Source: Tetraselmis striata (taxonomy: Eukaryota > Chlorophyta > Chlorodendrophyceae > Chlorodendrales > Chlorodendraceae). From it: 64,000 nt of DNA. The stretch is taken from contig VCJN01002214.1 of assembly GCA_006384855.1 (NCBI GenBank), positions 1 through 64,000 on the forward strand, in the 5' to 3' direction. The translations under genes and the position numbers were made by a program. Shown here one piece after another: positions 27,468 through 57,900 of the stretch. Every line of letters begins with the position of its first letter. The stretch's first letter is position 1. The notes under the pieces are model-generated. The model was not told the DNA's origin. It ran no database searches and was given only the letters and a program-made list of their open reading frames with translations.

Positions 27468-29134
27468 CTAGTCGCTGTCCTCATCAGCCTCCTCCAGCCA
27501 CTTGATGATGGGGGTGGCCACCAAGCGGGCGGCCTCCGCCTGCTTCTCAGTCACACCCGCCGGCTCCGCAATCGCGGTGCGCTTATTCCACGCAAGGATC
27601 ACCTCCTCCTCGCACAGGTCGTCATCGTACAGCACCTTGAGCACCTTGGGCAGCTCCTTGATCTGCTCGGGCGCAGCGACGGTGACGTAGTGCTCCAGGC
27701 CGCCCAGCATGATGAGCTGCGAGTTGGCGTCGCTGAGGTGCGCCTTGATGTACTCGGCCTTGTCAGCAATCTTGCCTGACAGCGGCTCCTCATCGCCGCC
27801 AAAGATGACGTCCCACATCAGTCGGGCCGTGCCGACCGGGCCTCCGGGCACCTCCATCTTGGCCAGCGCCGTCGCGGCATCCTCCGCGGAACGGCTGAGA
27901 ATGTACTCGCGCAGCGCCGGGACATCGATGTCATCATCGTCGTCATCATCGTCGCCATCCCCGTTGCCCTCGCTGCCACTGCCGCTGCTGCCGTTGACGG
28001 ACAGGTCATTCATCTTCTTGGCCGCCTCCTTGGCCGCCTTCCTGGCGGCCTTCTCCGCCTTGCGCGCCTCCTTGTCCGCCTTCTTCTTCGCTGCGATCTC
28101 CTCCTCCAGGTTGCCAACAGTCACCATCGACGCCGTCGCGCCGGTCAGCTGCGCCTGCACGCGCGCCGCCACAGCCGCAGCGCTCGTGTCTGTCATCCAC
28201 TCTGTCTCCTCCTCCTCGTCCTCCTCGTCCTCCACGTCGGGCGCGCCTGCCAGCTCAGAGCGCATGGACGGGTCCAGGTCATCCTCCTCCTCCGAGCCGC
28301 TGCCCGTCTTCTTCTTGTCCTTGCGGTCCTTCTTGTCCTTCTTCTCTTTTTTCTCCTTCTTCTCCTTTTTGGCTTTCTTCTCCTTCTTCCGCTCGCTGGC
28401 GTCGTCATCGATGTCCACGCCGGTGGCTTCGGCCATCTTGTTCCTGATCTTCTTCTCAGCCTTGGAGACCTTGGCCTCGGGCGGGTTTTTCAGGATGAAG
28501 GTGTTGAGCTTGTGGCGCATGTCCACGTCCGACACAGCGCCGCAGGCCTTGCACTTCAGGAAAATGAAGTCCTTCTTGTCAATGTTGACGACGGTCTCCG
28601 GGTTGCCGCACGAGTAGCACTGCACGTACTTCTTGATGAAGCCCTCCAGGAGGTCGGCGATCGTCGCTGTCTGGTGCGCGCCGTTCACAATCGACGTGCC
28701 CGTCTTGTCATCGTACTTGGTCTGCGCGCCCAGCTCGCAGCCATAGTACTTGATCAGGTACGCTGGAGGCCGCTCCAGAGCCTTGGCCACTTCCACGTTG
28801 TTCATCACGTTGGTCTTGATGCCGTTGCCTGAAAGGGGAAGGGGGGCAGCATCAGGGACTGGCTCGCAGGCGTGTGGCTGGCAGCGGGCCACAGCTGCCA
28901 TACACTACTGATAGAAAGGGTGATCACTGACATTGGGGTGAAAGTGGAAATGCGCTTGTGACGCGTTGTTCCTGGCAAGGAGGGGAAAGCGCGGTTCTGT
29001 GTGTTGCTAGGCAAGAGGGGGGGGGGGGGGGGGGGGGGGGGGGGCTCACCGCGGCCTTCGATCTTCGTTTGAAGACGCGGCATTTTGTACCGGTAGAAGG
29101 CATCGCCCTGGTTGGACGCACCGATGTTCTGCAT
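27468..29134 (-). CDS. EIF5: Translation initiation factor eIF5
   Basis: Two exons: 29134-29050 and 28828-27468 (481 aa). eIF5 is the GTPase-activating protein for eIF2 in the 43S/48S initiation complex. Exon 1 encodes MQNIGASNQGDAFYRYKMP; Arg15 in FYRYKMP corresponds to the GAP Arg finger. Exon 2 has NGIKTNVMNN, RPPAYLIKYYGCELGAQTK and a zinc finger C-x2-C..C-x2-C (VQCYSCGN ... LKCKACGA). A long Lys/Glu linker follows, then an acidic stretch and the C-terminal W2/HEAT domain ending IKWLEEADEDSD, the acidic-aromatic box that contacts eIF2-beta and eIF3. Intron 29049-28829 starts GTGAG and almost at once runs into 28 C on the coding strand. The antisense frame 27709-28617 is a shadow. Confidence 0.95.
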
Positions 29135-32100
29135 GTTGGCGAGCTGTGCCGCTGATCGCGGCGCGAGAGCGCGGCGGCTGCGGTCAGACGGCCGGCGAGC
29201 TGGACGCTGCGGCGGAGGGCGCAGGCGGGCTGAGCCGAGCAGGCAGCTGCCTTACAAGCGTACGGGTACGACCGGAATGACGGCGGCGGCGGTGCTGCGG
29301 CGGAGTAGGCGCTGCATTCAGCGACAGAGCCCGCGGCTTCCGAATTTTGGCGCACGTGGCGGTTCCTGGGCACGCGGCTGGCCTGCAACTGTCCCCCGGC
29401 TTCGTGGGTGCGAAACAGCATGAAGAGTCGGCGAGACGCGGGGTGTAGGGGACAAGGCGGTTGCGCGCGTGGGTGCTCCTGCGCTGTATTTGACTACGCT
29501 GCGGGACGACGAGCGAGTGGCGCTCGGGCCTGGTGGTGGCTTGGCTGCGGTGAAAGGAAATTCCTGAAACACTGAGCTTCGAGAGCGAGCTGTGACGGTG
29601 CTGGCCACACTTGAGGCGGTCGCTGGGCCGGGGAAGGGTGAGGGTGTCGCTCGAGCTGCGAGAGGTGCTGGAAGTGCTTTGCCGGCGGCGCGCGTTGTAG
29701 TCTTCTGGGAAGCAACTCGCGCGGATACATATTTGCGTTGCTGCTGCGTCGATCTGCTCGTCCGCGACCCGCCGTCGCGCCCGATTCTCGCGCGCTGGGC
29801 ATATCACGGGACCATTACAGCCCGATTAGCGACTTCAGGTACCCGCGTACAGGTATCCCTACCCTCACCTGTATCCAGCATCTAAATCGCACCATAATAT
29901 CGCTGATCGCGCGACCGGGGGATATGAGGTGATGTACGAATATACTCATGTGCTACGTTTGCGACTTGCTGCGCTGGCAAAACTCCGAATGCTGCCAGTA
30001 CTGCGCAAGCCTCTTTCTACGAGATGTGTATACTACTACGAGTACGCGTACTGCTCGCGAACTACGAGTGTACATAACTAGCTGATATACGTGAAGCTGG
30101 GATTCGCAAATAAATTTCAAAGTTGAGTCCGGTTTTGCCAAAACGACCGCGCACAAGATCCGAAGATGGCAGAGAGGTTCAGTGAAAGCGTGGAGGGAAA
30201 ACGAAGTCAGCAGGGGGGCGCTGCGTGGAACACAGCGAAACCGGACTTTTTTGGGAGGGGCTCGGCCACACTCAATTGAGATGTAAACACAGTCGTACAT
30301 AATATTTTTTGCTCGAAGTGGCCCCTGCCGCATAGTAGTCTACTCAGCCACTTTGAGGTGCCGGCTATAGCTTCATCGATATTCGAGATTATCGAAGAGC
30401 TGCCAATACCCTAGACCTGACTCCTGCTCCTTTGGCTTAGTTGCGCAGGGACAGGAAGGCGGGAGCGAATACAAAGCCGGAACTAACTGACCCGGATATT
30501 GCAGACCCCATAACTATTTGTAGTGGGACAGCCGAGGTTTCTACGTTACGACCCCCGCCCGCGCCGCCCCACTACACCCTGACCTAGTGTCGCTTGATCT
30601 TGATTTCTCTTCCATCGCTCCCGCGGTTGTTGCCCCTTGCCCCTTGCGAGGGCAACGCTTCCTCAACTGGCAAAGCTGTCGCAGCAGCTGTCGGCGAAGA
30701 ATTAATTCAAATATTCAAAACGCCGTCTGCTAAAGTGCTAAGCGGAGAACGCGTGACGCGCGCGCGGCTGTGCCGCCCCTTCCGAAAACATAATTTCGCC
30801 GCCCGCCATGTCACCACAGCTCCGAAGTCGGCGAAATATACCTTTATTGAAGGGGCAGGGCCAAAGTCAATTGAGATGTAAACACATTACTGACATTACA
30901 ATGTTTGCTCGAAGTTATCGTTGCCGCATATTCGTCTTATTTACCCAGTCTAAGGTGATGGCTATAGATTCATCGATATTCGAGTTGATCGAAGAGGATG
31001 AGCCAATGCCTTAGACCTGATGACTCTCAATAGACTCCACTCACATACTTCTAGGTCACGCCGTAGGTAACGGCGCCCGTTTTAACACCCGCTGGATCAG
31101 CGAAGTGTACGCCGACGTATTCGCACCTCCGTAATTCGCAGCGTCATCAAGTGCGAGGTCGCCGCCGGGAAACTAGTTAGTGTGCGCCAGCGATGTACTG
31201 CAGCCACCCGTCTTAGAAGTTGTCGTTGGCATTTTGATTAACGAGATGTTTGAAGTCCTTGATTTTGAGTAGAGTGGTGTCAAAGGCCGCAGTACCGCTA
31301 GTCGAGGTCCCAGGGCAAGGAGTTCCCTCAGGCATGGTAAGGAGACGAGGGTAAGTCGCAGCTGCAAAGCGTAGGAGGTCCTTAGGAGTCGCAGGAAAAG
31401 ACATGGATGATGAGTGTTAATGTTGGTGTGGTGAAACAGGGAGGGAGCACTTGTGAATCTCAAGATGGACAGGGGCATGGTTTGAGCCACGAGGTTGGAG
31501 AAGAGACGACGCAGGTCGACGAGGAGGTGCATGTCATGAATTGCACAGAAAGCATCACTAGGGGCAGCATGGGCACAAGTGGCAAGAGAGATATAGCCCA
31601 CAAGGGGAGCACAGTGCATAACACCATTGAGGCGGAACATATATCTTGAGTATAAAAGCTTGGTACTAATGGCCCAGAGCTTGATAAAGTATCATACATG
31701 AGAGATGCGCTATGGGATGCACAGGTGACATGAGACTGCGAAGCTCTGGTAGAAACAAGGAGGTGGTTACAAGAAGCTGATCACGCATGTGATTATACTC
31801 ATCAGCAAGTAGAATTCTAGCATGCCCCTTAAGTGGGCACTTTTTTATTAAATACTTTATTGTAACTATTTGTGAGCCAACTGCTAATTCTGTTGCACAA
31901 CCACTACCGAGCCTCTGGTCGGCAAGCTGACTGGAAGATCTGCGGGGCATTCTGTGCAGATGTGGCATATATTCAGTGCTGACTGGTGAGTTTCTGTTGA
32001 CTGGTCAGTTTTTGAATAGACTGGGATGTGTAGGGCCGATATTTAATCTGCGTAAAGTACTATATGATTAAGTGCACTCAGCATACTACAGACCATTATT

Positions 32101-32265
32101 CGTTTCTCTCAACAAGTATTGCCTGCCTGGCTAGACTTTGCCTTCGCCCAACAGCACTCGAAGTCGACTCGCACGGGAACCTGTTGCTGCAAATCCCCCC
32201 TGCCTTTCAAAGGAACCCTGTCCCACTGGCTACGGGCAGGTCTAGCGAGAAGCCGGCCCCCCGCC
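29135..32265. other. Divergent promoter region and repeats, no gene seen
   Basis: Three kilobases between eIF5 and OS9, which point away from each other. Two diverged copies of a 170-bp segment lie at 30255-30425 and 30859-31025; shared blocks include AATTGAGATGTAAACACA, TTCATCGATATTCGAG and CTTAGACCTGA or CTAGACCTGA. Minus frames at 31173-31968 are open but show no family signature. Confidence 0.5.
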
Positions 32266-35200
32266 ATGGGACATGCGCACCTCCGACCCGCGGGCAGCCT
32301 CGCTGCGGTGGCGGCCCTGCTCGTGCTTCTGGCGCCGCTTTGCAGCCGGGCGCTGGAGGTCCGGATCGCAGGTGCGCGGCGGCGCGGGTGCCAGTAGGCC
32401 AGTAGGGACTACCAGCCCGCTGTCCCAGGGGCGAGGAAGAAAGAAATAGCACGCATGATTGCATTCGGCTAGGCGTGGCGGGCCGCCCTTCGAGCAGCAC
32501 GTCCAGCCTATGATAACCCAAATGCGGGGGGTGCTGTGCGTAACGGGGGAGCGAGCTGTCGCGCTCTGGCGGGTTGGGGCCGGCAGAGGTGGTGGGGGGG
32601 GGGGGGGGGGGGTTGGGTACCTGTTGCTACCTTTTTGGGGTACGCAACAGGTAGCGCACACTCCCCGCGCAGGCCTCTGACCTCCTGTTGCGTGCTGGCT
32701 GCGGCGACAGACGTGACGCGCACCAGCTTCATCGACGAGCTGCAGGACACCAAGTACGTGATCGCCATGCGGACGCACAGGGGTAAGGGCCGCCTTCCCC
32801 GGGCAGGGGGGGGGGGGGGGGGGGGATGAGGGGGGGGATTGGGATGGTAAGGGGAGGGGGGGGGGGGGGTCATAGCCAGCTTCCGCCTGTCTGCTACTGA
32901 AGCGGGGGCCAGAGCGCTGAGTGTGAGCTGGGCTGCGCCTGGATGCGACCGCAGAGGTGGCGAAGCTGGCGCCGGACGCGGACGCGGGCTCGACCCCGTT
33001 GGTCATGTCGGACAAGGCGGGGCAGCAGTACCGCTGCTTCCTGCCGCCCATCAGTGGCGAGGGGGACGGCGAGAACTCGGGCTCGAGCGAGCAGGTGCGG
33101 TGGCGGCGCCGCGCTGAGGGCGGCAGCAGGGGGCGATGGCGGGGAAGGAGGGTAGGTGGGCTTGGCGGGGCGGGGCTGGGGCTGATGGCGGGTGGCGGGG
33201 CGGACGCAGGGCGGCGGCAGCGGCACCTCCAAGCCGCCCAGCGCGTACCTGGCCGGCCTGGCCTCCACCTGCTTCTACCGCGTGGAGGGCTGGTGGACGT
33301 ACGAGCTGTGCTACAAGAAGCGCATCCGGCAGTACCACCAGGTCCCCCCCCCCCCCCCCCTTCCGCTCTACATACCGCAACATTTGATAACCGTAATCTG
33401 TAGTGGGGGGGGGGGGGGGGGGGGGTCAATACCGTGTGTTGCACCATCTACTGGCACCGGCGCGGTGATACGAACGATGCAAACCAGAGCCCACCCTGCC
33501 TGCCAGCGGTCCAACGCCGACTGAACGACAGCGGTAACCTCAGCGAATGTCCTCATGGGTTGCACGCGAGCCGCATTTGAGGCTTATGAAAAGGCCCCTT
33601 GTAGGCGCATCGGCACCCGTGGTCAGGGCTTCCGTGCTGTATTCGTGGTGTACTCTGACATGTTTCCAGGGAAGTGTGGTTTTCCTTGTTTGCGAGGGGG
33701 GTCAAACAAACCGATATACAGCAGACCCCAGAGCGTGGTTGTGTTTCTGCCGTGCCCCCCCCCCCCCCCTTGCCGACGCGCGCCCTGGTTGTGGTCCGCC
33801 GTGCCCCCCCCCCCCCCCCCCCCCCCAACCGACGCGTGCCCAGGTTCCTCGCCCTCTCTCCGGCACACGGTACCCCGCTGAGTGCCGCGCGCTCTGCTGC
33901 ATGCCAGGACCACGAGACCATCACCTCGGAGTTCGTCCTCGGCAACTTTGACGAAGTCTCCTCCGAGAAGCTGGAGCTCGCGGTGGCGGAGGTGGACCCC
34001 CTCCCCCCCCCCCCCCCCCCACTTTCCTTACCCCCTCCCTTCCCCACCCCTTGCCGCCACCTGTCCACCGCCCCGATGCCTCCGCCAGACCCCCTGCTAC
34101 TCCTCCTGCTCCTGCTGCTGCTGCTGGCTTAGCGCGGGGCTCGCGTTCCCAGGGCGCCCCGGAGAGCAGCGCCTACTTCGCTCAGCGCTACGGCAGCGGC
34201 ACGCCGTGCGACCTCACCGGCACCCCTCGCGAGACAGAGGTGCGCGGGGCAGACGCTGGTCCGCGGGCGGGCAGGGAGGTGTTGGGAGGAGGGAGGGGGG
34301 GGGGGTGCTCCACTTGTCCCGGCTGCCTCGTCGGTGCTCTCTCGTGGGGGCTGAGCGCCCTCGCCGCCGCGCCGCCGGCCAGGTGCGCTACGTCTGCTCC
34401 GCGGACTCCGCCAACGTGGTGAGCTCCATCAAGGAGCCCTCCACCTGCTCCTACGTCCTCACCTTCCAGACGCCGCTGCTGTGCAAGCACCCCGCCTTCC
34501 GCAAGAAGGCGCGCGCACGGCTTTACCCCCCCCCCCCCTTCCCCCACCCCACCCAATTCCTCTAATATACATTCGCTATGCGGCGACTCCTCTAGCAGCT
34601 CGGGGAAGGGGTGGGGGGGGGGCGGGGGGGCTGCCGCGGGCTCCGCCCCCCCCTCGCGCGCACTTTTTGGCCGCCCGCAGCAGCGCCACACGGTTCTTCT
34701 GGCTGCGCGCCCCGCTTGCCGCCGCCCCAACCACTGCCAGCTTTCCCAGCGCCGCCCAGCGCGCCCAGCTGCCCCTGCGCCCCCTCCTAGAGCTCCCCCC
34801 GTGCTGCCAAACACGCCGCCCCTGCCGAGCCAGGCCACCACGAAGGATCGCCATGGTGCCTCACGGCCGTGCTGCCGTTACCGCGTCGCCATGCCGCCAG
34901 GTGCTGTAGCGCGTACACCTATATATATATATATATATATATATGATGTGTGTGTGTGTGTGCATAATTTACAAACATAAATATATATGTAAATATGTAA
35001 ATATATATCTATATGTATACATATATCTACATATATTTATATATTTATAAATATAAACATATGCAACATAATATAGATAAAGAAGTATGAATATGTATGT
35101 ATATGTATATTTTATGCTTATATACTCACAGATTTACACATATGTACACATATGTATAAAGCGAGGGAGTTTCCGGCTAGGGGAAATTTAAGTCCTCGTA

Positions 35201-37990: not shown

Positions 37991-40900
37991 TCATTCGGGG
38001 CTAAGCGGCCGCCGCCGGTCCGGCGAGTTGCCGTGCGACGACATCGGGCCGGTTGTGTGGACGGTGAAGAGCCGCCGGTTGGTCTGATCGAACGCCGCGT
38101 GCTCCGCCACGGCGCGCTGCCGCACGTTGTCCACCGTCGCCCGCAGCTGCGTCATCGCCATGTACTGCTCCTGCAGGACAGAGGGGGTTGGAGGGAGGCG
38201 GAAGGAAGAGGGCTCAGTGGGACTCGGCAGCGGGGTATAGCTCCGAAACCAGTGTAGCAGTCGAGGCAGCGTTCGCCCCAAAAGCACAACGCTTGCCACA
38301 CGGCCGCGTGATACCAAACGTATACAGGTACTCGCTGTTACCTCAGGTACACCTAGTACACGTACGAGTACTCGTACTGTGTATAGACATCTGACTGCCA
38401 CACTACATGTCTGTCTCCCCCCCCACCCCGGCGAGATATTGATTCTCGACTTTATTAGGGATCGAAATGGGGACGTCTAGGTCCCTGGATTGAGAACTCA
38501 TGCTCCGAAACCAGTATAGCAATCGAGGCGGCATTCGCCTCAAAAGCACAACCCTTGCCACACGGCGGCGTGATACCGTACATACACAGGTACTCGTCGT
38601 CACCTCAGGTACACCTTGTACACGTACGAGTACTCGTACTGTGTATAAACATCGAAACTGCCACACTACATGTCTGTCTCCCCCCCAGCCCCCCCACCCC
38701 GGCGAGATATCGATTCTCGACTTTATTAGGGATCGAAACGGCGACCTCTAGGTCCCTGGATCGAGAACTCATGCTCCGAAACCAGGGTAGCAATCGAGGC
38801 GACATTCGCCCCAATAAAAGCACAACGCTTGCCACACGGCTGTGTGATACCAAACATACAGGGGTACTCGTCGTCGCCTCAGGTACACCTTGTACACGTA
38901 CGGGTACTCGTACTGCATATAGACATCGTAACTGCCACACTTCATCTCCCCCCTTTCCGTGAGATACCGTGTGTGCCTGTGTTTTTCAATTCTGCCCCCG
39001 GGACGGGGCTGACACCGGTGAAGGCCGCGCAGCGCCTCTGCAACGGTTTTTCAATGAGGAATCGTGTTAGGCAGCAAATCCAGGTGCGGAAAGCCCTCTG
39101 GGCAGGCAGCGCTCCGTTGTAGTCATCAAGCAAATTGCCGGAGCATTTTGAGTGACTAATTGGAGGCCAGTGAGGGGATTTCCAACACTGTTGGATCGCT
39201 GCCTAAAACACTGCCATCGGAACACCCGGCCCCCACCACGAAAGGTCCGCCCTTCCCGTAGTCCGGGCGTCGGCCCATTCGAGTGATGCGAGTCGGACCA
39301 CGCCCCATCTTGCGGATGTGTCGCGTTGTGTGTGTGTGTGAGATACGGGTAGGGGGAGGGGGGGGGGGGGGGTCACCTCGTCCCGGATGCGCTGCTCGTC
39401 CAACAAGCGCTGCAAGCTCCGCAGCTTCATGCGGTCCATCGCGCGCTGCAGCCCCTCCAGCTTCTCCCTGAGGTGCGCCTGGTGCGCGGCCTCCTCCCTG
39501 CCGCGCAGCGCCCCGTCAGCCACCGCGAGCGCACGGCACACCGCTCACCAACCCTCGACCGTGGCGGCGCGCCGAGCGACGGGCCGAAACACCTTCCACA
39601 CCGCCACCCCCCCTCCCACCGACCGCGGCGCAAGGCTTCTTCCCGCGCCAGGCACTGACTTGCCCTATTAGGGTTTTGCAAAACCCTAATCTTGCACCTT
39701 GACAAGCATTGATTTGGCGGTTTTAGGTTTTTAGGTTTTTAGGTTTTAGGGTTTTAGGGTTTAGAGCGGTTTTATGGTTTAAAGCCCTAAACCGCTCATG
39801 AAAATATACTTGGTGGCGGCGCTCGACTCGGCCGCGGCGTCGTGCCCGGGAAGGCCAAGACGACAGCGACTAGGTTCTCCGGCGAATGACTACGGCGGTT
39901 TAGGGTTGATAAGAAACCTTCCTGGAGTGAGCTGGAAGAAAAACACAACCGAGGTGACGGCAGGGTCATGTCCATAAGCCCTAACCCGAAAGAGTTGTAC
40001 GCATAAACCCTAAAACCGCATGCTTCATATTATACTAGGGTACGGGTAGGGACGGGTTGGGGGGTTCCAATGTCACTGACAAAACCCTAGTAATAAACAG
40101 GAGACGGGTACTACATATGCCCGGGACTGCATGCTAGGGCAATGCTGACCCTAACGGGGGCAGCCGGCCCTATGCGGGTTCATGTCAGCCGGGCTGCAAG
40201 ACAGCTGGCCGGTGTAGTCGGAAGACTGGCAGAAGTATAAGAGTCGTAACGAAATTCAAATTTTCAGAGATCTGAGACGTGTGTGAGACTCGGGAACCAG
40301 GCGCCGGCGGGCAGGGTGTGAAACCCTAAACGCACCTCATCTTCAGGCGCATGGCTTGCAGGCTGTGCCTCACCTCGTCGCTGGCCGGGGAGGCCTGTGG
40401 CGTCGTGGGCGGCGGGGGCGGGGGCGGGGGCGGGGCGCCTGTGGGGAAGGGGGTTAGGCACAGAGTTTAGGGCTTGGGGACAGGGCTTCAGCTTTGCGGG
40501 CGGCGGGTGTCACGCTGAACAGAGCCGGCAACAGTACCTGTACCGGTACCACTATCGCGGTATGGTGAGGACGATGCGGACAGGGCTCCAAACCCTACCA
40601 ACCCTTCGAAATGTGATTTAGGTCTTGAGCTCTACAGGCAAACTACTGTCGAAACGAGATACGCTGCTGTTAGGTACCGCCACGCGCAAAGAGTCTAGAA
40701 ACCCTAAAAACTCTAATGTTTGTGGACGATAACCCTATAAGCCCTAACGTGACACAAATCGCAGGTCTTGTGCTGTTGCAAAGGACACAAGAGCGGAGAG
40801 CATGCGCGTGTGTCTGTGTATTTGTGTCTGTGTGTCTGTGTCTGTTTGTGTTGGGGGGGGGGGGGGGGGGCTCCAAAACCTGCAAGACCATATCCCTTCA

Positions 40901-43650
40901 AGAAATATGTTAGGCATTGAATCCCACCAAACCTAGCAATGAGAGACACTGCTCTGGTTTCTACGTTCCTACCGTGACAAACGACAAGGGAAGCCCTGAG
41001 ACCGCGATACCCAGGCTCATGGATGACTGGTGTCAGACAGAGAACGGAACGGGGTGTCACATTTTAGGGTTGTTAGGGTTTCCCTATTGGGGAGCAAAAA
41101 TGATAGGACGGGGCAGCGGCGTGTTTGGCCCCCGCGAGCACCGCTCGCTGTGGCATACATCAGGTATGGGTAATCCTAAACCCTAAAACGCGCAGAGTGG
41201 TGGCCGGGGGGGGGGGGGGGGGGGGGCTCTACCTCCGGCGGACGCCGGGGACGACTGCTGCGGCTGCTGCCAGCGCGCATCCGGACGGTACTGGTGCGGC
41301 TCCCAGGCGCCGCCGCCCGACGCGTCGCCGCCCCCGCCCCCGCCCCCGCCCGGCGTGCTGGCCCCCGGGCTGCCCCCCTGCTGCGCGCCGCCGCCCGGGC
41401 TGCCGGGGCGCCCCCTCGCTGCCGCGCGCAGCTCGCGCTCGCGCAGCTTGCACAGGTCGAACTTGGCCGCCATCTCCGGCGCCAGCACCCCGCAGTGCGC
41501 CTCCCACGACTCCTGCCGCACACGGAACACCGATCAGCAGGAACGGGGGACCACAGGTCGCGCGATACGCTCATCGACATGCCTCCGCAACAACGGGCCC
41601 GGGTAGGGCGGAGCTGCATGTATACTCGCGACATTACGCTGTGCAGGACCCCCCAGGAGGACGACCACCATCCAGAAACAACAGTTCAATTCAAAGGTGT
41701 GAAGAAACTGAACGGCGGCGGCCGTGGATGGCAACGGCCACGGGTGCCGGCGCGCCTATGAGAACCTCTGGGATAATCGTCAAGCCTCGGCAGGATGGGC
41801 CTGCGCGCACTGCCCGCAGGAACATTCGATATAGCTCCGCCTGCATTTGGCCTCTGGCAGCCCGGGCGGGTGGGTATTGTCACCGCATCGGCACCCGCGC
41901 GGCGCAACCGCAGCGAGTGGTCTTTATGGGTTGAACGCAGGCCCGATACGGGGCTTACAAGAGTGCTTGTCGCCGCGCCGGCACCCGTAGTGTTCCTCAA
42001 AGCAATCCCGTGGTAGGGTTTGATATGTCTTAGGGTCCCAGATCAGGGTGAGCGCCCCCCAGCCTGCCAACGCGAAAGCACCGCCCCGAGCGGAACGGAA
42101 GAGGGAACCAGGGGGGGAGGGGGGGCAGAGGGAAGGGTGGGGGGGGGGGGGGGGGGGCGCGCCGCACCTGCTCCTGCAGGAACTTGAGCCGCCAGAAGCA
42201 GAGCACCTCCACGATGCACTGCGCCAGGCGCGCCATCTGCTTGAAGTTGGCCTCCGACAGCTCCTGCGCCGCACCGCCCGGCTCAGCCGCCCCGTCCCCG
42301 CCTCGCCGGGAGAGGGGCTGGGCGGCGCCACCCACCTGCTGGTTCTCCCGCCCGAGGTCGCCGAACGTCACCATCTCCTCCACCGCCACCAGCTCCGCGA
42401 TGGCTCCGCTCCGCAGCTGCGCCGCCCGGAAGTGGGGGGGGAGCACTCAGGGGGGGGGGGGGGAGGCAGCAGGTGAAGTGAGGTGGGAGGCTGTGGCGCA
42501 CCACTTCGCCGATGTCCACGCTGTGCAGCGCCTGCCAGTTGATGGCCAGGTGGGCGGCGTTGAAGCTGAAGGCGCGGTGGCACGACGCCGCCTCCTCGCA
42601 CTGCTCGATCGCCGCGTTCAGGGCGCCCTTCTCCGAGTGCGCCGCCCGCGCGGCCGCCAGGCGCCGCTGCCGCGCCGCGCTGTGGTACGCCTCCAGCCGC
42701 TCCTCCTGCAGCAAGCCCGCGGTCTCCTCCTCCAGTGCGGAGCTCAGCCCCTCCAGTGCCTCGATGTACCTGGGTACAGGGGGGCAATCCAACTACCATC
42801 AGCGCCACTCGGTCACCTGATGGCCATCGATAGTGCCCCAGGGCGTGTGCCCACTCGTTTTCCATGCCATGACCCCCTCCCCTCCCCAGCCCCCTCCACA
42901 CACCTACTGATACCGTTGCATGCTTGTTCGCCTTGCGTGAAACACCTAAAAGCCCTAAAACCTGCCCAGCAAGCCCAAGCAGGCTGGAAGCGGCACTCCC
43001 CGCCCAGCCCACCTCCCTGGAACCCCAAACCTCCCGCCGTACCTTCGCATCCCGGCATACTTCTCCTGTAGCGACAGCACGATGTTCCGGCGCCAGGCGA
43101 CCTCGTGCTCTAGGTAGTCGATGCCCAGCTGGCACAGCCGGATGAGCTGCGCGTAGTTGTGCGGGCTCAGGTGGAGCGGGTCATCGAACGCGACGTCGCC
43201 CTGCAGCACCGCCGCCAGCCCGCGCTCCAGCGCCGCCACATCCCTGTTCGCCACCTGCGGAGGCCGTGGCGGGGGCGTCAGGTGAGAGGCGCTGGCGATC
43301 GGCTTGCAGTTTGCGCCTACTGGTACTGGTAGTTGAGAGGCACATGTCGGGTGCAGCTCCACTAGGGTATTATAGGGTTTCTGTGCAACTCCGGTACGGC
43401 GACACCTTATCATTCGCTTGCGCTGAAACCCGGGGACGGCCAGCACCGTCGCGCCGCCGGCAGGGTTTGGAGCCTAGAGAGCGCACGCAGGGGTGGGTGA
43501 TGTTAACGGCCAAGGGCGCACCACTCGCGCGAGGTCGATGCCGTGCAGCACGCGCCAGTTGAGGCCGCGAGTCCTGCGCGCAAAGCGGAAACCGCCGCGG
43601 CCGGGAGACTGGCGGCTACTCGCCGACTCCGCCCCCAAACCCCCGTCCAT
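37991..43650 (-). CDS. DZIP1-related protein with duplicated N-terminal domain
   Basis: Nine exons in phase: 43650-43522, 43254-43043, 42769-42502, 42416-42336, 42263-42168, 41512-41233, 40438-40336, 39497-39377, 38170-37991 (489 aa). Residues 20-110 read FRFARRTRGLNWRVLHGIDL ... LIRLCQLGIDYLEHE, the DZIP-like N-terminal domain of DZIP1/Iguana basal-body proteins. A second copy follows after a coiled coil: FSFNAAHLAINWQALHSVDI ... MARLAQCIVEVLCFWRLKFL. Both copies split at the same GTG|GTGCGC donor, so exon structure was duplicated too. Downstream are a Gly-rich stretch, a Pro run, and coiled coils (LREKLEGLQRAMDRMKLRSL). No clear C2H2 finger. Expected at basal body or centrosome by family; unproven here. 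The ATG at 43650 fits the family start. Confidence 0.7.
38241..38948. repeat. Minisatellite of about 265-bp units in the last DZIP1-like intron
   Basis: Three tandem copies begin CTCCGAAACCAG at 38241, 38503 and 38774 (periods 262 and 271); the last is partial. Each carries the 16-bp palindrome GTACGAGTACTCGTAC or a close variant, and copies share GAACTCATG and GGTCCCTGGAT blocks. Confidence 0.9.
39660..39800. repeat. Interstitial telomere-like repeats
   Basis: Runs of TTTTAGG, TTTTAGGG and TTTAGGG (39718-39762) next to an inverted TTAGGGTTTTGCAAAACCCTAA. More CCCTAAA or TTTAGGG units are scattered through introns of the same gene (for example 40004, 40322, 40695, 41066-41180, 42950, 43370). 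The array is too short and degenerate to be a chromosome end. Confidence 0.75.
40145..40265 (+). repeat. Dispersed repeat R3, copy 2 (in an intron)
   Basis: GCGGGTTCATGTCAGCCGGG..GCAAGACAGCTGGC with an end GAAATTCAAATTTTC, within the intron between exons 7 and 8 of the DZIP1-like gene. Confidence 0.6.
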
Positions 43651-45366: not shown

Positions 45367-46069
45367 TCAGCGCGCCCGCTTCCCGCTGCGGCGGTGCTTT
45401 TCCCCCTCGTGGCGCCGGGCACGGCGCTTCCGCTTCTTGTCCCTTTCATCCCGCCCTTTCTTGCCCTTCTTGTCCCGCCCCTGCTTGCGCCGTCTCTTCT
45501 TCGCCGCCTCCCGCTCCTCCTCCCCAGCCTTCCGCCGCCTCCGCTTCCGCTTCCGATGCTCCCCGCTGCTGCTGCTGCTGCTTCCACTATCCCGAGAGGA
45601 GCCGGCGCCCCCATCGCTGCCGCTGCTGCTGTTCGAGGAGCTGTCGCAACGGCCCTCCTTCCCCGCACGCCTCCCCCGGAGTCGCACCGTGGCGGGCGGA
45701 AGCGCCGGCGGACCAGCGGGTGCAGCGGGCAGATGCAGCCGGTCATTCCTCGGGCCCTCAGGAGCCGCGGGCCCCAGCTGCCCGCCCCGAGATGGCGCCG
45801 GCGGCAGCTCGGCAGGGCCCGCAGCCGGCAGCACTGCCGCTGACCCCGAGCCGCCCGCCCAGCCGCCCTGCGCGTTGAACAAGTCCACGGAGCCGACCGG
45901 AGTACGTCAGCCGATGCCCGCCCCGGGGCAGCTCCCGCCTGGTTAGGGCTTCGCAACCCTGAGGATACGGACGGACGGACGATGCGGGGTCAAGGGGGGG
46001 GGGGGGGGGGGGGCGCCTCAAACGTGAGCTCCCCTTCGCACACCAGCAGCGGCTCGTCCTCGTCAGGTT
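45367..46069 (-). CDS. Basic Ser/Lys/Arg-rich nuclear-type protein, 5' end not found
   Basis: Last two exons: 46069-46017 and 45867-45367 (phase 0 junction, 166 aa in the last exon). The first encodes PDEDEPLLVCEGELTFE; the second is low-complexity: Gly/Pro-rich, then a Ser run (SSSNSSSGSDGGAGSSRDSG), then a long Lys/Arg tail with several nuclear-localisation-like clusters (EHRKRKRRRRKAG) ending RSGKRAR. The donor appears to be GC (GAG|GCGCCC), followed after 3 nt by a C run on the coding strand. Upstream exons are expected beyond 46069 because the exon starts mid-codon. I do not recognise the family; composition suggests a nucleolar or RNA-associated protein. Confidence 0.5.
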
Positions 46070-47896: not shown

Positions 47897-49526
47897 CTAT
47901 GTGCTAGTATGATTAATCTTCGATCTTTTCATTGTGAGAGTGGGAGTGGGAGTGGGCTTGGAAGAGGGTCCTCCTGTAGAGTCTGCTACAGGTAGATGAG
48001 GTCAGGAAGACACTAGGGGGCAGTGGATGGGGGGGGGGGGGGGGGGGGGGGCTGCACCCGCGCGCCGGTTCTTGTTGAGGTAATCGACCGCCGCCCGGGC
48101 GTGCCCGGACGCCCCGCTGCCTCCAGCCTGTCCGCCCCACCACATGCGGGCAGTAGGGACGCCCTCAGCGTGCACCACAGGGCACCACCGCGGCGCGCAA
48201 CGAGGCCACGCGCCATCGGCCTGGAGAATGGGGATGTGTCCAACCACCCATCCCCGTCCCCGTCGCCGCTGCCCGCCGCCCTGCTGCTCCCCGTGATGGG
48301 GCGCACAGTGCTGTGTGGCGGTATGGGGCTGCGGGGCAGGTCCGCACCTGGATCCGCTTCATCATGTTCCCGCGGTTGTTAGCGTCCAATGGCTCGGCAG
48401 CCTGTTCAGCACGGTGCCAGCACAGCGCCGCCTTCAGCCTGCTTGTGGCTCTCCTGCTCTGCCTTGGAGGGCGATCAGGAGCATGCCCCCCCCCCCCCCC
48501 CGCCCCGCCCCACAAAAAAAAACATACATACAGATACACATGCACATGTAGATACAGGTACACCCCACCACCTTCGCCGCCAGCACCTTGCGTGTCTTCT
48601 GCTTGGGCTTCGGCAGCGCGGACGTCTCCACCCTCATGACCATGCCGCCTGGGCACAGCAGCCGACATGCCGCCTGAAGCTGAGCGACCATGCCCTGGAC
48701 CGAGGGTGGGAAAATGCTGGGCGGGGGCTGAGCGGAAGTGGGGGAGCTCACGCTGCGCCAGCAGCAGCCCCCCTTCGCCCAGCGGCGCCCCGCGCTGCCT
48801 GGCCCGCTCCTCCGCCGACGGCGGCGCGGGGCGCTCGTACGTGTCGCGTCCCAACGCCGCCGCCGCTGCCACTATCTCGCGCTCCGTGTGGCTGCACGCA
48901 GCAGTCGGCGCGTGTCATGCCGTGCACCTGGCCTTGCCAGCACAGCTACACCCAAACGAGCCCAACCCGGGCTTGAGTCGTACCCTCCTGCACGGTGTGT
49001 ACCTCCCCCGTTGTACACAACGGCGGACTGAAAGGCTCACATATGTTCACATCAACGCACTGGACTTGTCGACCCCCTCGCTGTCTCCCTCGCTCTCTCA
49101 CTCTCTCTGGCAACATCTCACTCTTTCTCCCAACAGCAGCGCCATGCCAAGCCACGGGCAGCAGCCTTGCCTGCGACCACGGTCCTGCGGGTTGTGCAGC
49201 GTGTCGTTGAGGTGCTTCTCCACGTTGAACATATTCTCCTTAACCATGGCGCCGGCTTCCAGACCGTCGAGCAGCCGGGGAGGGAGGTCGCTGCCAACAA
49301 GCCAGTCCACAGAGGTCCGACCAGCGGGCGACAGGGCGGCTGATAGGCTGAGTCGTGGACACCTAGGGCGCAGGATCGGTTGAGAGCGGCACGCGAGGGG
49401 GGAACGCCCGCCGGACTGCGGATGTGACGACAGACGACCGTTGCTATCGACCCGCCCGACAGAACAAGCACTATACCGATAATATAAGGAAATCGCCACA
49501 TCACGCCAAGGTCGCCGCACGATCAT
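47897..49526 (-). CDS. Unrecognised six-exon protein with a possible transit peptide
   Basis: Exons with matching phases: 49526-49171, 48891-48752, 48648-48572, 48458-48348, 48127-48058, 47973-47897 (276 aa); the last exon is least certain. The start MIVRRPWRDVAISLYY opens an Arg/Ser-rich, acid-poor stretch of about 75 residues that could be an organellar transit peptide. Then come VDWLVGSDLPPRLLDGLEAG, MVKENMFNVEKHLNDTLHNP, HTEREIVAAAAALGRD, SALPKPKQKTRKVLAAK and ALCWHRAEQAAEPLDANNRG; mostly helical, no domain recognised. Intron 1 appears to use GC-AG (CGCAG|GCAAGG). Intron 5 (donor 48057) starts GTGCAG and runs into 23 C. The gene is divergent from the neighbour starting at 49992. Confidence 0.45.
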
Positions 49527-49991: not shown

Positions 49992-52475
49992 ATGCCGGCA
50001 ACGGGGTCGTCCGTTGGTCCGCGAATCGGCGCCACGAGGCCGCTCCCCCGCGCGCCCACCAGTAGCTCCAGCGTCAGCGCCCCCCCACGCCCCCAAAAGC
50101 GTACCGTCGCCAGGACTCCCCAGCCCCAGGCAGCCGGTGCGGGCCGCCGAGGATGCACGGGGAGGCTGCGTGCGGGTGGCAAGCCGGCGGCTGAGGCGGG
50201 CGCCGCGCCGTGGAGCCTCCTGTTCGACCTGCGCGAGCGGGAGACGGAGTGGAGCGACGGGAACCAGGTGCGAACCGTGCGGTGCGGTGCGGTGCAGTGC
50301 GCCCGCCCTGGACCGGCCCTGAGGCCCCGAGTGACTGCCTCTTCTTGCCTGCCGGCTGGCGGGGTGGTGACGCGGGCGGTGCTGCGGGCGGCGCGGCAGG
50401 CGCGCCTGGTGGTGGCGTTCGCGGCGCAGGAGCTGGGCGTGGCGGAGGAGGAGGTGCGGCGTAAGCTGGGCGAGCTGGCGGTGCTGATGCCCGACCTCTG
50501 TACGCCCCCCTCCGCCGCCTCGCGCCCTCTTTTATGCACCCTCGACCCCCTCGCCGCATCTGCCGCACGTCGCAGACCCCACCCTCCTCGTCCAGCCAGT
50601 CCTAGTACGGTAGCGATGGGACTGTCGTGTCAGCAGCGGCACCACGTATCATCGTCATCATCGAGCCGCGTTACAGCAGTCCACAAAATACAAAAGCACG
50701 ACCTGCCAGCTTCTCCAGAGAGGACAATACTCCCCAGCTAATTAGTTCTCGCAGCGAATCTGTGTTCTTACCTGCACGCAAGGTGGGGAGGAGAAAGAAG
50801 GGCGAGGGAACCGCATTGCCACCCAGAGGGGGGGGGGGGGGGGGAGAGGGGGGGGCATTGGGTCGTCAGGCAGGAGCGGGCCTGATCGTGAAGGCGTGGC
50901 GTCGTGTGGAGATAGTGTGGCCACCTGCTCACAACTCCCCCTCCCCCTTTCCCTCGCCCGTGCGTGCTCGACCCCACTGCCCTTCCCGGAATTGCAGCCT
51001 CCAGGGTGGGCAAGCTCACGCCCGGCACCGTCACCTCCCTCATCCGCGACACCAAGGCAAGCCCCCCCCCCCCCCCCCCCCCGCCCCCCTTTTTCCCATT
51101 AGCGACATCCCGGCCACAGTGACCTGATTGCTTCAGCTTGCGGGGCAGACCAGCATTCCCCCTTACACCCTTTCCCTCCTCCTTCCCTTTCCTCCCCACC
51201 CCCTGACATTGGGGCACTCATCCGCAGGTCGTGGCACTCAACATGGTGCAGCTCAAGTCCATCTTCCCGGCAGCCAACGTGAGCGCCGCCGTGGCAGGTC
51301 AGCGCCCCTTCCCGCCCCATCCCGCCCCATCAGCCCTTCGCGCCCCGCGCTCTTCCCGGCTGATGGCGGCCGCCTGATGGTGGGCTGAGGGGGGGCGGCG
51401 GTGGGGGCAGCGCGGCCGGAGCTGGCGCTGATGCCGCCGGAGGAGGTGCGGCGCGAGGCGGCGGCGGTGGCGGAGCTGCTGGGCGTCGACGCGGTGGACG
51501 ACCTCGTGGAGGAGTACCCGCGGTGAGGCGGCCCTCCTCCCCTCTCGCCGCGCATGCCTGCACGAGCAGGCGTCTCTCCTGCGCGCCGAGCGCCACTGCC
51601 GGGCTGTCCCCCGCCGGTTGCGAATGCGGCGCCGACATCGCCCACACAACATCATGGGTGAGCTGGAGATAATATACCAAGTGATGAACTATTCACACAC
51701 ATGCTGCAGACCTGCTAGATGCTGCAACCTACTGGCAGCGGGATGCGTGGGCGGCGGGGGTGGGAACCCACCGTGCTATGCGGACTGGGGGGCGGTGCCC
51801 CCCACACTTTCCCTTTACAAAACGGTGGAGGGGTGCCTAGGTGGCTAGGGCATCGTGCTGTATGGGGGGCTTGGCTCACGCGGAATCACTTTGCCAGCTG
51901 CGGGGAGGAAGGGGGGGGGGGGGGGGGAAGGGGGGTTAAGGGACCAGGCCTTGACAGGGCTACACGCTACGCACGTTGGTTAGTGCGCCCTATGCGGGCT
52001 CGTGCGGCCGGGTCGTGAGACAGCTGGCTTGTTTAGCATCACAGACTAAGCGGTAGGCAACGTAGTGTGAAATTTTAAATTTCAAACGTAAGTGAACTCG
52101 GTCACCCATGTCATGTATTGAAATTTCTTACTACAACTTTATTCCTGCTGGTTTCTCCAAGCTGTGCAGGCCAGCCATCGTTCGGCCCGGCTGCACAAAG
52201 CCGCATCGGGTTGGCGGTAGCCGCATCAGTGCAGCCCTCTGAAAGCCAGCACTGTCACAATGTAGCCGCCGCCAGCGGCCTCCGCCATGCGGTGTGCCAA
52301 GTAGACCGACAACCTCCCAGAGCCCCTCGGCCGGATAAGTGGCACCCATGCTCTCACCGACTGGTCATAATGCATGTATTGATATCGTGATCTATCTAGA
52401 CCAATAAGGACATAGCGCGCTCCTAAAAATGCTGTTCTCGAGTCGGCACCCGTATTCATTGAATTGGGATCATCC

Positions 52476-53484: not shown

Positions 53485-53814
53485 GCCCCACCCCGGACAA
53501 TCCCCTCCTCCCCACCCTCCCTCCCCTTCGGCCATGCCTTGTCGGCGCCGTCGCTGTGGCTGCTGGCCCGAGCTCCCTCTTGCCCGCACCCCGCTGTGTG
53601 CCCCGGACGGCAGGCGCGGCCGACGAGCGCCGGGACTACCTGTAGCCACCCGCCGTGTGCGCCGAGCGCGAGGCGGGGCGCCCGACAAGAGGAGCGCGCC
53701 CGCGCGCCCGCCGTCCCCTCTCCCTGCTGCCCGCCCGGCGCAGAGGCGGCGCCGTACCCCCTGCGCCCTATAGCTATCTATTGAGGAAGAGAGCGGCATC
53801 CATGCCGCGGAGAC

Positions 53815-53819
53815 TGTAA
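53815..53819 (+). terminator. TGTAA polyadenylation signal of the mTERF-like gene
   Basis: TGTAA 331 nt after the stop codon at 53484. Confidence 0.6.
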
Positions 53820-54009
53820 TCAATCTCGGGCACGACTGCGCACTGCGCACTGTTGTTCTGCAATACAAGTTGTGATGTCGGGTGCTCAAATTAATGCGCG
53901 TAGTGAACATGCTACGTCAGCAGCAGGGCGTAGTATGACAGTATAGTATATATGTGTAATTTTTTTTTGGGGTGATTTCCGATATCGCCTTCTGCTGCTA
54001 TTTCATGTA

Positions 54010-54430
54010 GATATATGTGTATATGTATGTGTATATGTATGTTATATTATGTTATATATATTATATGTAACATATTGTACATTATATGCCATATACATTA
54101 TAACATATATACCATATCTATCTGTAATACATATATGTTATGTTATAATATGTAAAATGTATATGTTATATGTTTGTATAATGTATAATATGTACTATAT
54201 GTATACATTATATGTATATAATGTACAATATCATACATACATTATAACATGTTTTATTACATATGTATAATGTATAATATATGTGTTATATAATAATGTA
54301 TGAAATGTATACTATATATGTTATATATATGTATAATGTATGCTATGTTGTACATTTTACATACTATATATTATAACATATTATATAGTATATGTTATAT
54401 TTTATATCATCATCATACTATGTATATATA
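54010..54430. repeat. AT-rich (TATATG)-type array between convergent genes
   Basis: About 420 bp made almost only of TATATGTA, ATAATGTATA and related units, with many short palindromes. No coding content. The rest of 53485-54976 is 3' flanking sequence; 54570-54650 resembles 35690-35770 (GGTCCACA[A/G]GGCCC then GTCGGA[A/T]TATTCGT). Confidence 0.8.
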
Positions 54431-54976
54431 CTCTATTCCACTACCCTTCCACACAACTCCTAGGTTCCATTTTCGGCGAATCCGATTCACGAATAGCTGC
54501 GGAGTTGAATAATGTGCAGACGGACCTCTTGGTCTGTCGTTGCTGCACATCCGCTCGCATACTGCAATAGAAATAAATGCGGTCCACAAGGCCCAAAAAT
54601 CGAATTCTTGTGCAGCTTTGCGTCGGATTATTCGTGTTGTATTCTGTTTTACTTCTCCGTTTCCCCCCTTCGCTGTGTGTGTTTGTGAGGGGGGGGGGGG
54701 GGGGGGGTTCGAAAACGTTACTTATCCGCAGAGCCTTTGTGTTAGTAGGGTTGTGTTCCAGGCGGCGGGTAGCTAGTGCTAGGGCCTCATGCTGTGCTAG
54801 TCAGCGCACAGATACCAACAGCCAATATAACCATGCCACCTCTTGATGGCGTCGGATAACGTCTCTGTACCACCATTGCCTCAGTAGGTGAAGCTACGGG
54901 GGCAAAGGAAGCACCAACCATCACATACATTATTGCCGGTTTTGCCGGGCATCACGGCCGCTGCATGCGCCCAGAC

Positions 54977-57900
54977 TCACCCCGAAGCGCGGGGCCGTAT
55001 CACGGCCTCAGTCTCGAGCCTCGTCCCAGGTGCGCCGGGGTCGACTCGCCGGCTGCTGTCCGCCAAGCGCACCAGGACGGGGACGAGCTCCCTCGCCTCC
55101 CCATCCGCACCGCGCCGACCGAGGTGCCGGTGCGCCACCATAGCCTGCGCCATTGCGGTGGCCATGCGGAGCAGCAGGTGGGCAAGCGACAAACCGCGCT
55201 TTCGGTGGGTATCACGGGACGTATCAAGATGTACGCCCAAGCATCGACTGGGCCTTAAAGCATATCTATGATGGGAAGCATATCCATATTGTTGTGTCAT
55301 ATCCATCATTCATATCCATCTTGAAGCATTGAACATGATGGGAAGCATATCCATCATGTGATATCATCGGCACAGCCAGTTCTAAACTCATCGAGTGAGG
55401 CGATTCCCGTGAAGTTAAAGTGGTGTCACTCGCGGAAACAGTGTATGAAAAACAGGATATAAGGGGTCACTTGTTTATCCCAAATGATCATGCACATCAT
55501 GGCCATATGTGGGGAGCGCAAGAGGTCGTGTGAGGGCGCCGGGGGATGGGGGGGGGGGGGGGGGGGGAGGATATACCTGCGCCAGTGGAGCCACAACCTG
55601 CTGCCGCACGAGGCGCGCTACGGGCTGGGCGCCCCGCTGGCTGTCGATGGCAGCGCCAACAAGCGCCGTCTCTACCGCCGGCGACACCTGCAGCTGGAGG
55701 CCTGCCTGCTGAGCCAGCCGCTGCGCTTCCGCGACCTGCAGGAGCCGCCGCAAGGTACACGCGCCACGACAGTCGGTACGGCACCGTCATCTGGCATTAC
55801 GGGCGGGCGTATTGAATGCGTGTGCGTCTGGGCGACTGCGATGTCAGCCACGCTCGTCCAAAAGTCTGCTGAAACTACTACCGCGCGCTCCGAAACCAGC
55901 ATGCGCCACGGGAACAAGACGGCGATCTTCGCGCGATTTTCGAACGGTTGCAGCTCCAAAACCATGAGCTACACAGGGATCGAAAACGACTACGGTGATC
56001 GAGGGTTTGTTGGATGCTAGATCGTTGCTCTTTCGACCTTCGGAGCACCTTATAATCACAGCAACGCGCTCGATGAGTGCAAGAAAGCAAACGTCGTCAT
56101 ATGTTATTTATTGTCGGATATAATATGCTGCTTGATCCGAGTGAGAGCAATATATTTATCCACAAAATAGTTCGTCCGCACGAAGGGTTGGCGGCCGTAT
56201 CCGCGCAATCATGAAGCACGCAAACGAAACAGACTTAGGACTAATAACATCCGACAAGCATCTCGACCCAGCAAAGTGTAGTTTGCAGCAGAAGCATAGA
56301 GTGATGCCGGTTACAAGAAAGGAGAAGTGTCTACACAATATCGGACGGGGTTACGCACTTTTAAATTAACAATCGGCCACGTCCACACTCGCACGGCAGT
56401 ACTTTCGCATCCATATCACCATGCCAGCTCTGTCGGTATTTAGTCGGCTTATCACTTTCGATAGAATGGGCGCGGGCATAGGCCGAGAAGCGCGGATATG
56501 GCCGCACCTGCATGCGTACGACCTCCCCCAGGTGTGCCTCTCCCAGGGGCTTCAGGTACACCACGTCGTCCACCCGATCCAGTAACGCCGGCAGGACAGC
56601 CCGCCGCCGTCCGGGATGCCCGCCATCCGATACCGCTGCGCTCGACAGGGCCGACCCAGTGGCGCTGAGCCCGGGCGCATCATCGGCCGCATTTGATCCC
56701 GTTGCAGCTTCCGGAGGCAAGCTGCCCTCCGAGTCGGGTGTCGCCTGCCGGCCAGCATACACACTCGGCGGTTAGTAGGTCGACCGTCCCGCCATCGAAA
56801 CTAACCAGTGCAAGAGGATGGAATGAAACTTGGAGTAGACCACCCCCTCATCCTCCCAAAAATCAACAACTCGACGTCCATACAAAATAACTCAAGAGTT
56901 GCAGCTCGTAGATCAGTTGACAATGCCGATCTGAATCTTGACTTGTTACAGGACGACTGTCATTGAATGTCGAGACTTCCGCATCAAGTGTTGTGTTGGC
57001 GATTTTTGCTCAGTGCGTCAAGCTTCTGAATGCTGTCGACGTACGACATGCCCGCTATCGCCCTCGTATTCAAAACTCTCCGGAATTACGAGTGGGCCGC
57101 CGAGACTCGAGCCCACGAGACAGTAGCCTGCACCCGCCGCCTATCGTCTTCACCCTGAGAACGGCGAGACACGGTCCCTCCGTATCTCAGCGCGCATGCA
57201 ATCCCATACCTCCAGTGAGCGCGGACACGACCAAGCTGGCAGCGTGCAAGCCCATCGAGCCGCACGCATGCACCATACCCTCCCGAGGGAAAGCGATGCC
57301 TGGGTGTACGCGTGTGTCCCAAACAGACGGGCACTAGTCTCTCCGCTTCAAGAGTATTTAGGTAGCAATGAACCGTAGCTATTTTTGGTAGCAATGTTAG
57401 ATAGCTATTTTTGCGCTGTACACCGAAAAGAGTGACGTTACAACCATCTAGAAATAGTTTTAGCTACGCATGAAGATAAGCAGCAAATCCATCTCCCCCC
57501 CAAAACTTTTTCAGATCCAGGTTGTACGCATTCAGAAATGTGATACACATAAATCCACACATAAACATAAATTTCAGACATTGACAGTGTGCTATTGCCT
57601 TGCTGAGACATGCGGTAGTTGAGCCGATGTGCTGCCGGCGCCCGCACTGGTACATGTGGTTATAAAGCGCACATGTTCCATCAGGCTGTGCGTCTGTGCC
57701 TCATACCATCGGCAAATCAGGAAAACGCTTATTTGTACGGGTACATGTTCCCGTTTGGCGGGCCTAACAATGAACCGGACTCCAGAGCCCCCGCCCAATT
57801 TTCGTACTCCTTCCCTTCGCCTCACAGAACGAGTAGTACGTACTGGTATCGCGCATTGCTTAATATATTACAATAACTAATAATTATAGGTATTATAACC

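What the first reader, a model, noticed from the sequence alone, without database searches (positions are those of the whole stretch)
29017..55577. Long poly(C) runs sit just inside the 5' splice site of many introns, always C on the coding strand
Eleven introns in six genes start a C run within 3-16 nt of the donor: eIF5 intron 1 (run 29044-29017, from +6), OS9 introns 4, 5 and 7 (33344, 33997 with one T, 34524), DZIP1-like introns 5, 6 and 8 (42157, 41226, 39372), the basic protein (46013), the six-exon protein intron 5 (48051), the mTERF-like gene intron 3 (51062) and the Clp-like gene last intron (55567). Plus-strand genes show C and minus-strand genes show G on the printed strand, so the bias follows transcription. 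Runs deeper in introns are mixed C and G. The window has over 35 runs of 14 or more. Such tracts could form i-motifs or G-quadruplex/R-loop structures behind the polymerase, act as a splicing-enhancer code, or mark where introns were gained.
Basis: seen in the sequence. Interest (0 to 1): 0.82.

Follow-up and report, generated by a model that had tools for sequence, protein, structure and literature searches.

The report
Poly-C tracts at intron starts
In this green alga's genome, long runs of the base C sit unusually often right at the start of introns and almost always in the same orientation as the gene, which suggests that they matter to, or are tolerated by, the machinery that cuts introns out.

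Summary
Of 11 claimed donor-proximal C runs, 7 are at donors in an unconstrained ab initio model, 2 more only with the strand forced, 2 are not supported. In 264 kb, 356 predicted introns carry a run of 13 or more within 20 nt of the donor 26 times as C and once as G; deep runs are mixed (31 and 23 introns). Five of the 20 added stretches had been picked where run hits were listed; the 15 unpicked ones alone give 11 C and 0 G in 200 introns. Masking runs before prediction changes little. Genome-wide, AGGT followed within 8 nt by C14 occurs 3553 times on one strand, its complement control 559 times; AGGT before G14 (2016) barely exceeds its control (1608). An acceptor word shows a 1.6-fold excess. 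A second assembly copy has most of the same runs with different lengths: real, length-variable microsatellites. U1 snRNA is canonical; no introner signature was found. Best reading: RNA-level, 5'-splice-site-specific retention, probably as C-rich enhancers bound by an hnRNP K/PCBP-type protein helping U1; neutral seeding with tolerance is close behind. No expression data were available.

The parts
29017..29049 (-). eIF5 gene, intron 1 donor GTGAG (29049-29045) followed by C28 (29044-29017)
   Evidence: ab initio intron 28878-29049; downstream exon encodes eIF5 domains PF01873 and PF02020; other copy has C6, a 2-nt interruption, then C23
33342..33360 (+). OS9-like gene, donor GT with C17 from +3
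   Evidence: ab initio donor 33342; PRKCSH domain PF07915 spans the junction; C19 in the other copy
33992..34020 (+). OS9-like gene, donor GTGGA then C5-T-C18
   Evidence: ab initio donor; longest C run only 6 in the other copy
34526..34538 (+). C13 run claimed as OS9 intron 7 start; not at a donor in the model (donor 34481, 45 nt upstream)
39358..39376 (-). DZIP1-like gene, donor GTGA (39376-39373) then C15
   Evidence: ab initio; C15 in the other copy too
41206..41232 (-). DZIP1-like gene, donor GTAGAG (41232-41227) then C21
   Evidence: ab initio; C15 in the other copy
42139..42167 (-). DZIP1-like gene, donor GTGCGGCGCG then C19
   Evidence: ab initio; C24 in the other copy; gene has Dzip-like_N PF13815
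45994..46013 (-). C20 run near the 'basic protein'; donor not confirmed
   Evidence: forced minus model has its donor at 46043, about 30 nt upstream of the run; calls the plus strand here
48029..48057 (-). six-exon protein, donor GTGCAG then C23; only in the strand-forced model
   Evidence: no Pfam family
51057..51082 (+). mTERF-like gene (name from the finding; no Pfam hit), GC donor GCAAG then C21
   Evidence: ab initio, the model allowing GCAAG donors; no Pfam hit
55548..55576 (-). Clp-like gene, donor GTATATCCT then C20; strand-forced model, Pfam-supported strand
   Evidence: ClpB_D2-small PF10431 on the minus strand

Best explanation
The genome carries thousands of length-variable poly(dC):poly(dG) microsatellites. 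Those that lie just inside a 5' splice site with C on the sense strand are kept (or arise) several times more often than elsewhere in introns, because the C tract is read in the pre-mRNA: it acts as an intronic enhancer next to the donor, probably bound by a KH-type poly(C)-binding protein of the hnRNP K/PCBP kind (or a TIA-1/Nam8-like factor, recalled) that stabilises U1 snRNP. This would let donors work although the run has eaten into the +4/+5 consensus. Shown: the position- and orientation-specific enrichment, its near absence at acceptors, length variation between copies, canonical U1. Inferred: RNA-level selection, the protein, and help to U1.
For: Donor-only and sense-only enrichment: C 26, G 1 in 356 introns; 11 and 0 of 200 in the unpicked stretches; nearly unchanged when runs are masked before prediction (C 23-26, G 1 in five repeats; unpicked 10-12 and 0); decays to background by about 40 nt. 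Genome-wide AGGT-N0-8-C14 3553 against complement control 559, AGGT-N0-8-G14 2016 against 1608; CAGGTGAG-N0-20-C14 104, -G14 37, G14 on its exon side 25. Smaller excess at an acceptor word, 142 against 89, and 6 C and 5 G of 356 introns. Deep runs show no clear strand bias (44 sense, 36 antisense), so the asymmetry is not a general transcription effect. Run-bearing donors have a weaker +3..+5 (G at +5 in 13 of 26 against 200 of 278 without runs). The U1 5' end reads ATACTTACCTG in both loci found, so C runs cannot extend U1 pairing and a protein reader is likelier. Precedent: hnRNP K bound to a pC tract downstream of a 5' splice site promotes U1 snRNP binding (PMC6008300, passages); a chicken beta-tropomyosin C-rich element near the 5' splice site bound by hnRNP K (as cited in PMC2481429, passages).
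Against: No RNA-seq, so no donor is proven used. The stronger exonic half of run-bearing donors (p 0.04) may come from the model's summed donor score. Introns without runs are at most slightly C-rich after the donor (0.315-0.327 in +6..+15 against about 0.29 deeper), so a C tract is no general requirement. Run persistence between the two copies is not clearly higher at donors: 5 of 6 sites against 5 of 10 others are 13 or longer in both (p about 0.3 by hand; an earlier by-eye tally used is withdrawn). Thymine bias in the decayed flank of donor runs is marginal (p 0.05-0.09). The AGGT excess in the unpicked 150 kb is small (5 of 42 against 1 of 42). In animals C-rich motifs can also silence, and in one human intron they were weaker than G-rich ones (PMC2481429). 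No trans-factor was looked for.
Confidence: 0.43

Rival explanations
1. Neutral seeding and tolerance. Short C runs of 5-6 nt happen to be commoner just after donors, slippage expands some into long microsatellites, and G runs there are removed because G-rich RNA near the donor harms splicing. The tracts themselves do nothing.
For: C5 and C6 runs are denser at +4..+33 (24 and 12 in 356 introns against 82 and 33 in 96,578 mid-intron bases); run lengths differ between copies, with gains and losses, and donor runs persist no more clearly than others; C runs of all classes, also antisense and intergenic, have the same sharp 5' edge and decayed 3' flank, so the expansion process is not donor-specific.
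Against: Long runs are enriched more (18 against 2.0 expected in the first 10 nt) than short seeds, and the short runs may be relics of long ones; G depletion alone cannot raise C above background.
Confidence: 0.35
2. Signature of intron birth: C-headed fragments inserted at exonic AG|GT sites and survived because they could be spliced, so the run marks the intron's 5' end.
For: Abrupt 5' edge right after AGGT; strong exonic AG and weak +4/+5 in run-bearing donors.
Against: No similarity between run-bearing introns except in duplicated genes and one partial 69% hit; no whole-intron copies of the DZIP ones among the matches listed (40 of 1718 candidates scored, simple repeats skipped; partial matches near 38973-39316 and at 40801-40851); the shared stretch at both ends is the splice consensus; non-donor runs have the same sharp edge.
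Confidence: 0.1
3. DNA-level structure: G-quadruplex or R-loop on the template G strand behind the polymerase, or chromatin pausing at exon ends, favours C-sense tracts.
For: C. elegans intragenic G tracts prefer the non-coding strand 84 to 47 (PMC2211496, passages).
Against: In C. elegans position within introns is reported unbiased; here the bias is confined to the donor end, and deep runs are near balance.
Confidence: 0.08
4. Assembly or gene-model artefact.
For: Homopolymers are hard to sequence; the gene models are ab initio; part of the sample was picked.
Against: Most of the runs sit also in a second, 94-98% identical assembly copy with different flanking variants; masking runs and dropping picked stretches leaves the result; the genome-wide motif counts need no gene models.
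Confidence: 0.04

Closest known systems
Poly-G/poly-C tracts of Caenorhabditis (PMC2211496; outline with abstract, and passages seen)
   Same: Abundant long G/C homopolymers, mostly outside exons, intragenic ones with C more often on the coding strand
   Different: There position within introns is reported unbiased and the strand ratio is 84 to 47; here the bias is at the donor end, 26 to 1
Tandem repeats near intron-exon junctions in Chlamydomonas and Volvox (PMC3887541; passages seen)
   Same: Green algae with repeats enriched toward intron ends
   Different: There both intron ends (U shape), GT/AC dinucleotides abundant; here C homopolymers, donor end, strand-specific
hnRNP K/PCBP C-rich intronic splicing enhancers (PMC2481429, PMC6008300; passages seen)
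   Same: C-rich tract downstream of a 5' splice site; in one case it promotes U1 binding
   Different: Vertebrate or viral cases of short C-rich motifs in single introns; here pure C13-C33 tracts in about 5-7% of predicted introns of an alga, with no protein shown
Introners (PMC9860276; passages seen)
   Same: Would place a common sequence at intron ends
   Different: No shared intron body seen, no target-site duplication seen

Membership tests
hnRNP K/PCBP-type C-rich intronic enhancer | C-rich tract just downstream of a 5' splice site in the RNA sense | tested here: met
   26 C against 1 G within 20 nt of 356 predicted donors, 11 against 0 of 200 unpicked; 3553 against 559 genome-wide
hnRNP K/PCBP-type C-rich intronic enhancer | Removing the tract lowers splicing or U1 binding | not testable with these tools
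   no expression data or experiment
hnRNP K/PCBP-type C-rich intronic enhancer | A KH-domain poly(C) binder is present and binds | not tested
   no search for KH proteins was made
Introner family | Sequence similarity between introns reaching both splice sites | tested here: not met
   masked BLAST of 26 run-bearing introns against 356: only duplicated-gene pairs and one partial 69% hit; one search lists no whole-intron copies of the DZIP introns. A rare family could be missed with this sample
Introner family | Target-site duplication or terminal inverted repeats | tested here: inconclusive
   shared stretch 2.85 against 1.97 nt (p 0.001) is explained by AG|G of the splice consensus; inverted repeats not tested
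Caenorhabditis-type intragenic G/C tract | Long G/C homopolymers outside exons, C preferred on the coding strand | tested here: met
   0 runs in 34 nt of upstream exon (1-3 after masked prediction); 66 C against 32 G runs in predicted introns
Caenorhabditis-type intragenic G/C tract | No positional bias within introns | tested here: not met
   18 C runs in the first 10 nt against 2.0 expected

The most novel reading that the evidence does not exclude
In this alga a poly-C tract is a second, genome-wide form of the 5' splice site: AG|GT plus C(n) replaces the GTRAG consensus, read by a dedicated poly(C)-binding U1 helper, so that splicing tolerates microsatellite expansion into the donor itself and tract length tunes intron removal.
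Probability: 0.12. Interest if true: 0.82.

Novelty: new variant of a known kind. Interest (0 to 1): 0.58.

Why it matters
If the tracts help splicing, a fast-mutating microsatellite would be built into roughly one intron in fourteen to eighteen (26 of 356 predicted; 11 of 200 in unpicked stretches), giving length-dependent control of splicing and a natural test set for how much of the GTRAG consensus can be replaced. If they do not, the genome is a clear case of how splice-site constraint sculpts homopolymer positions. What besides GTRAG defines a 5' splice site becomes testable with ordinary RNA-seq.

Tried and rejected
U1 pairing extension: rejected, U1 5' ends are canonical. C-rich donors in general as the source: introns without runs show only slight C excess. 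Acceptor polypyrimidine role: small excess. Donor-directed drift by one-sided deletion, predicting G runs near acceptors: G runs 40-60 nt from acceptors 5 against 1.8 expected, too few to judge. A first gene finder with re-estimated splice matrices drifted to 816 introns and was dropped for one with fixed matrices. Sampling: five of the 20 added stretches (L009-L013) lie at places where one search had listed GT-N4-C14 hits, so they are biased towards the pattern; they are reported apart. Seven of the 26 donor runs lie in L012/L028; L012 is in repeated families and L028 shares one of them. My by-eye tally of run persistence (5 of 6 against 4 of 11) fed; a scripted recount gives 5 of 6 against 5 of 10, and I lowered the best explanation by 0.02 and raised the neutral rival by 0.02 for it. 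Paper searches for donor-side poly-C in algae: 25 of 81 papers listed; 15 of 3,228; 12 of 22; 12 of 53; C-rich enhancers: 62, 78; introners: 23. None of the listed titles and abstract starts reports it; the unlisted papers were not seen, and most subscription journals are not held.
Full report
Setting. The window is contig C1789 (1-64000) of an unnamed 224-Mb assembly in 2903 contigs. Two chlorophyll a/b-binding proteins read from it (loci) look like green-algal LHCII, and the one compared matches PDB LHCII chains closely (that such entries are green-algal is recalled). The species is not known. G+C is 58.5% in the 264 kb examined.

Sample. The 264 kb are the window plus 20 stretches of 10 kb. 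Fifteen (L014-L028) are starts of contigs taken at regular number steps. Five (L009-L013) lie in contigs, at places, where one search had listed GT-N4-C14 hits, so they favour the pattern. Counts are given by source where it matters.

Observation. The window has 15 C and 21 G runs of 14 or more, one A run of that length and no T run. In the 264 kb run lengths are bimodal: chance-like up to about 9, then a second hump around 15-28. An ab initio gene finder with fixed GT/GC-AG matrices that stop at +5, and a strand-symmetric noncoding model, predicts 356 introns. Of the 11 claimed donors 7 come out directly, 2 more with the strand forced, and 2 do not. Pfam supports eIF5, OS9 (PRKCSH), Dzip1 and, on the minus strand, ClpB D2-small; the pieces of the mTERF-like, six-exon and basic genes that were scanned have no hit.

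Is it more than chance? In the 356 introns a run of 13 or more starts within 20 nt of the donor 26 times as C and once as G; within 30 nt of the acceptor 6 C and 5 G; deep, 31 and 23 introns. For the 150 introns with coding signal on both sides the donor counts are 15 and 1. By source: window 7 and 0 of 83 introns, picked stretches 8 and 1 of 73, unpicked 11 and 0 of 200 with 13 and 7 deep; without L028, a duplicated family, 9 and 0 of 185. Because runs could attract the predicted donor, all runs of 10 or more were replaced by random letters before prediction: five repeats give 23-26 C and 1 G, with 1-3 C runs now on the exon side; in the unpicked stretches 10-12 and 0. Run starts peak at +6 (7 of 26) and fall to background by about 40 nt. 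Without gene models, AGGT precedes 24 of 110 C14+ runs against 4.0 expected, but in the unpicked stretches only 5 of 42, with 1 of 42 for G runs.

Genome-wide counts need no gene models and no sampling. Only counts anchored at the word are non-redundant ('forward' and 'control_reverse'), and they cover one strand. AGGT-N0-8-C14: 3553; its complement, TCCA-N0-8-G14: 559. AGGT-N0-8-G14: 2016; its complement: 1608. The stronger donor word CAGGTGAG with C14 within 20 nt: 104; with G14: 37; G14 on its exon side: 25; the C14 exon-side count was not obtained. The acceptor word TGCAGG with C14 within 12 nt upstream: 142 against 89 for its complement. So the excess is mainly at donors and mainly C in sense. 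The assembly holds some regions twice, so these are sites, not loci.

Nature of the runs. A second assembly copy (C715; a haplotype or a homeolog) aligns at 94% over 4.7 kb by the search, 97% and 98.5% in two scripted alignments. Of 16 sites with a run of 13 or more in either copy, 5 of 6 donor sites and 5 of 10 others have it in both; the difference is not significant. Longest-run lengths differ at 15 of the 16. The runs are real and dynamic. C runs have a sharp 5' edge and a C-rich, interrupted 3' flank (81 of 112 richer on the right, 23 on the left, p 1e-8), in sense, antisense and the 7 intergenic runs alike. This polarity is a property of the tract, not of splicing.

How it may work. Deep runs are nearly balanced (44 sense, 36 antisense), so transcription as such is not the cause. 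Donor-end and sense-strand specificity point to the RNA at the 5' splice site. U1 has the usual 5' end and cannot pair with C, so a protein is the likeliest reader. Precedents: hnRNP K on a pC tract downstream of a 5' splice site promotes U1 binding (PMC6008300), and C-rich motifs act as intronic enhancers, though they can also silence (PMC2481429). That the alga does this is inference. Run-bearing donors have a weaker intronic half and a stronger exonic half (both p 0.04); the second may be forced by the model's summed score. Neutral seeding remains nearly as good an account.

Against intron gain: no shared intron bodies, no whole-intron copies of the DZIP introns among the matches listed (a capped search), no target-site duplication beyond the consensus.

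Comparison. C. elegans G/C tracts show the same strand preference but no position bias (PMC2211496). Chlamydomonas and Volvox have tandem repeats toward both intron ends, with GT/AC motifs abundant (PMC3887541). A donor-end, sense-only poly-C class at this scale was not seen in the listings of the searches made, so I rate it a new variant of a known kind.

Noticed in passing
window 38990-39316: About 330-bp dispersed repeat with dozens of places at 77-80% identity elsewhere in the genome; part of it was called as a DZIP exon by the gene finder, so that acceptor is doubtful.
   Followed up: partly
L012 2514-7275: A 4.8-kb repeat with over 20 places, some partial, at 95-97% identity, itself containing donor-proximal C runs; identity not determined.
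   Followed up: partly
C runs in window and L009-L028: Directional decay: sharp 5' edge and C-rich interrupted 3' flank, in all classes counted; suggests a polar expansion mechanism.
   Followed up: partly
window 33740-33845: Short tandem array whose units carry a C run; largely missing in the second assembly copy.
   Followed up: no
window 41175-41200: Telomere-like letters (TTTTAGGGTTTAGG on the gene strand) just downstream of a donor C run; the likeness to telomere repeats is recalled, not tested.
   Followed up: no
assembly contigs C1789 and C715: The assembly holds two 94-98% identical copies of this region, so it is at least partly uncollapsed or duplicated.
   Followed up: partly
window 51057: A predicted GC-AG intron (GCAAG donor) directly followed by C21.
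   Followed up: no
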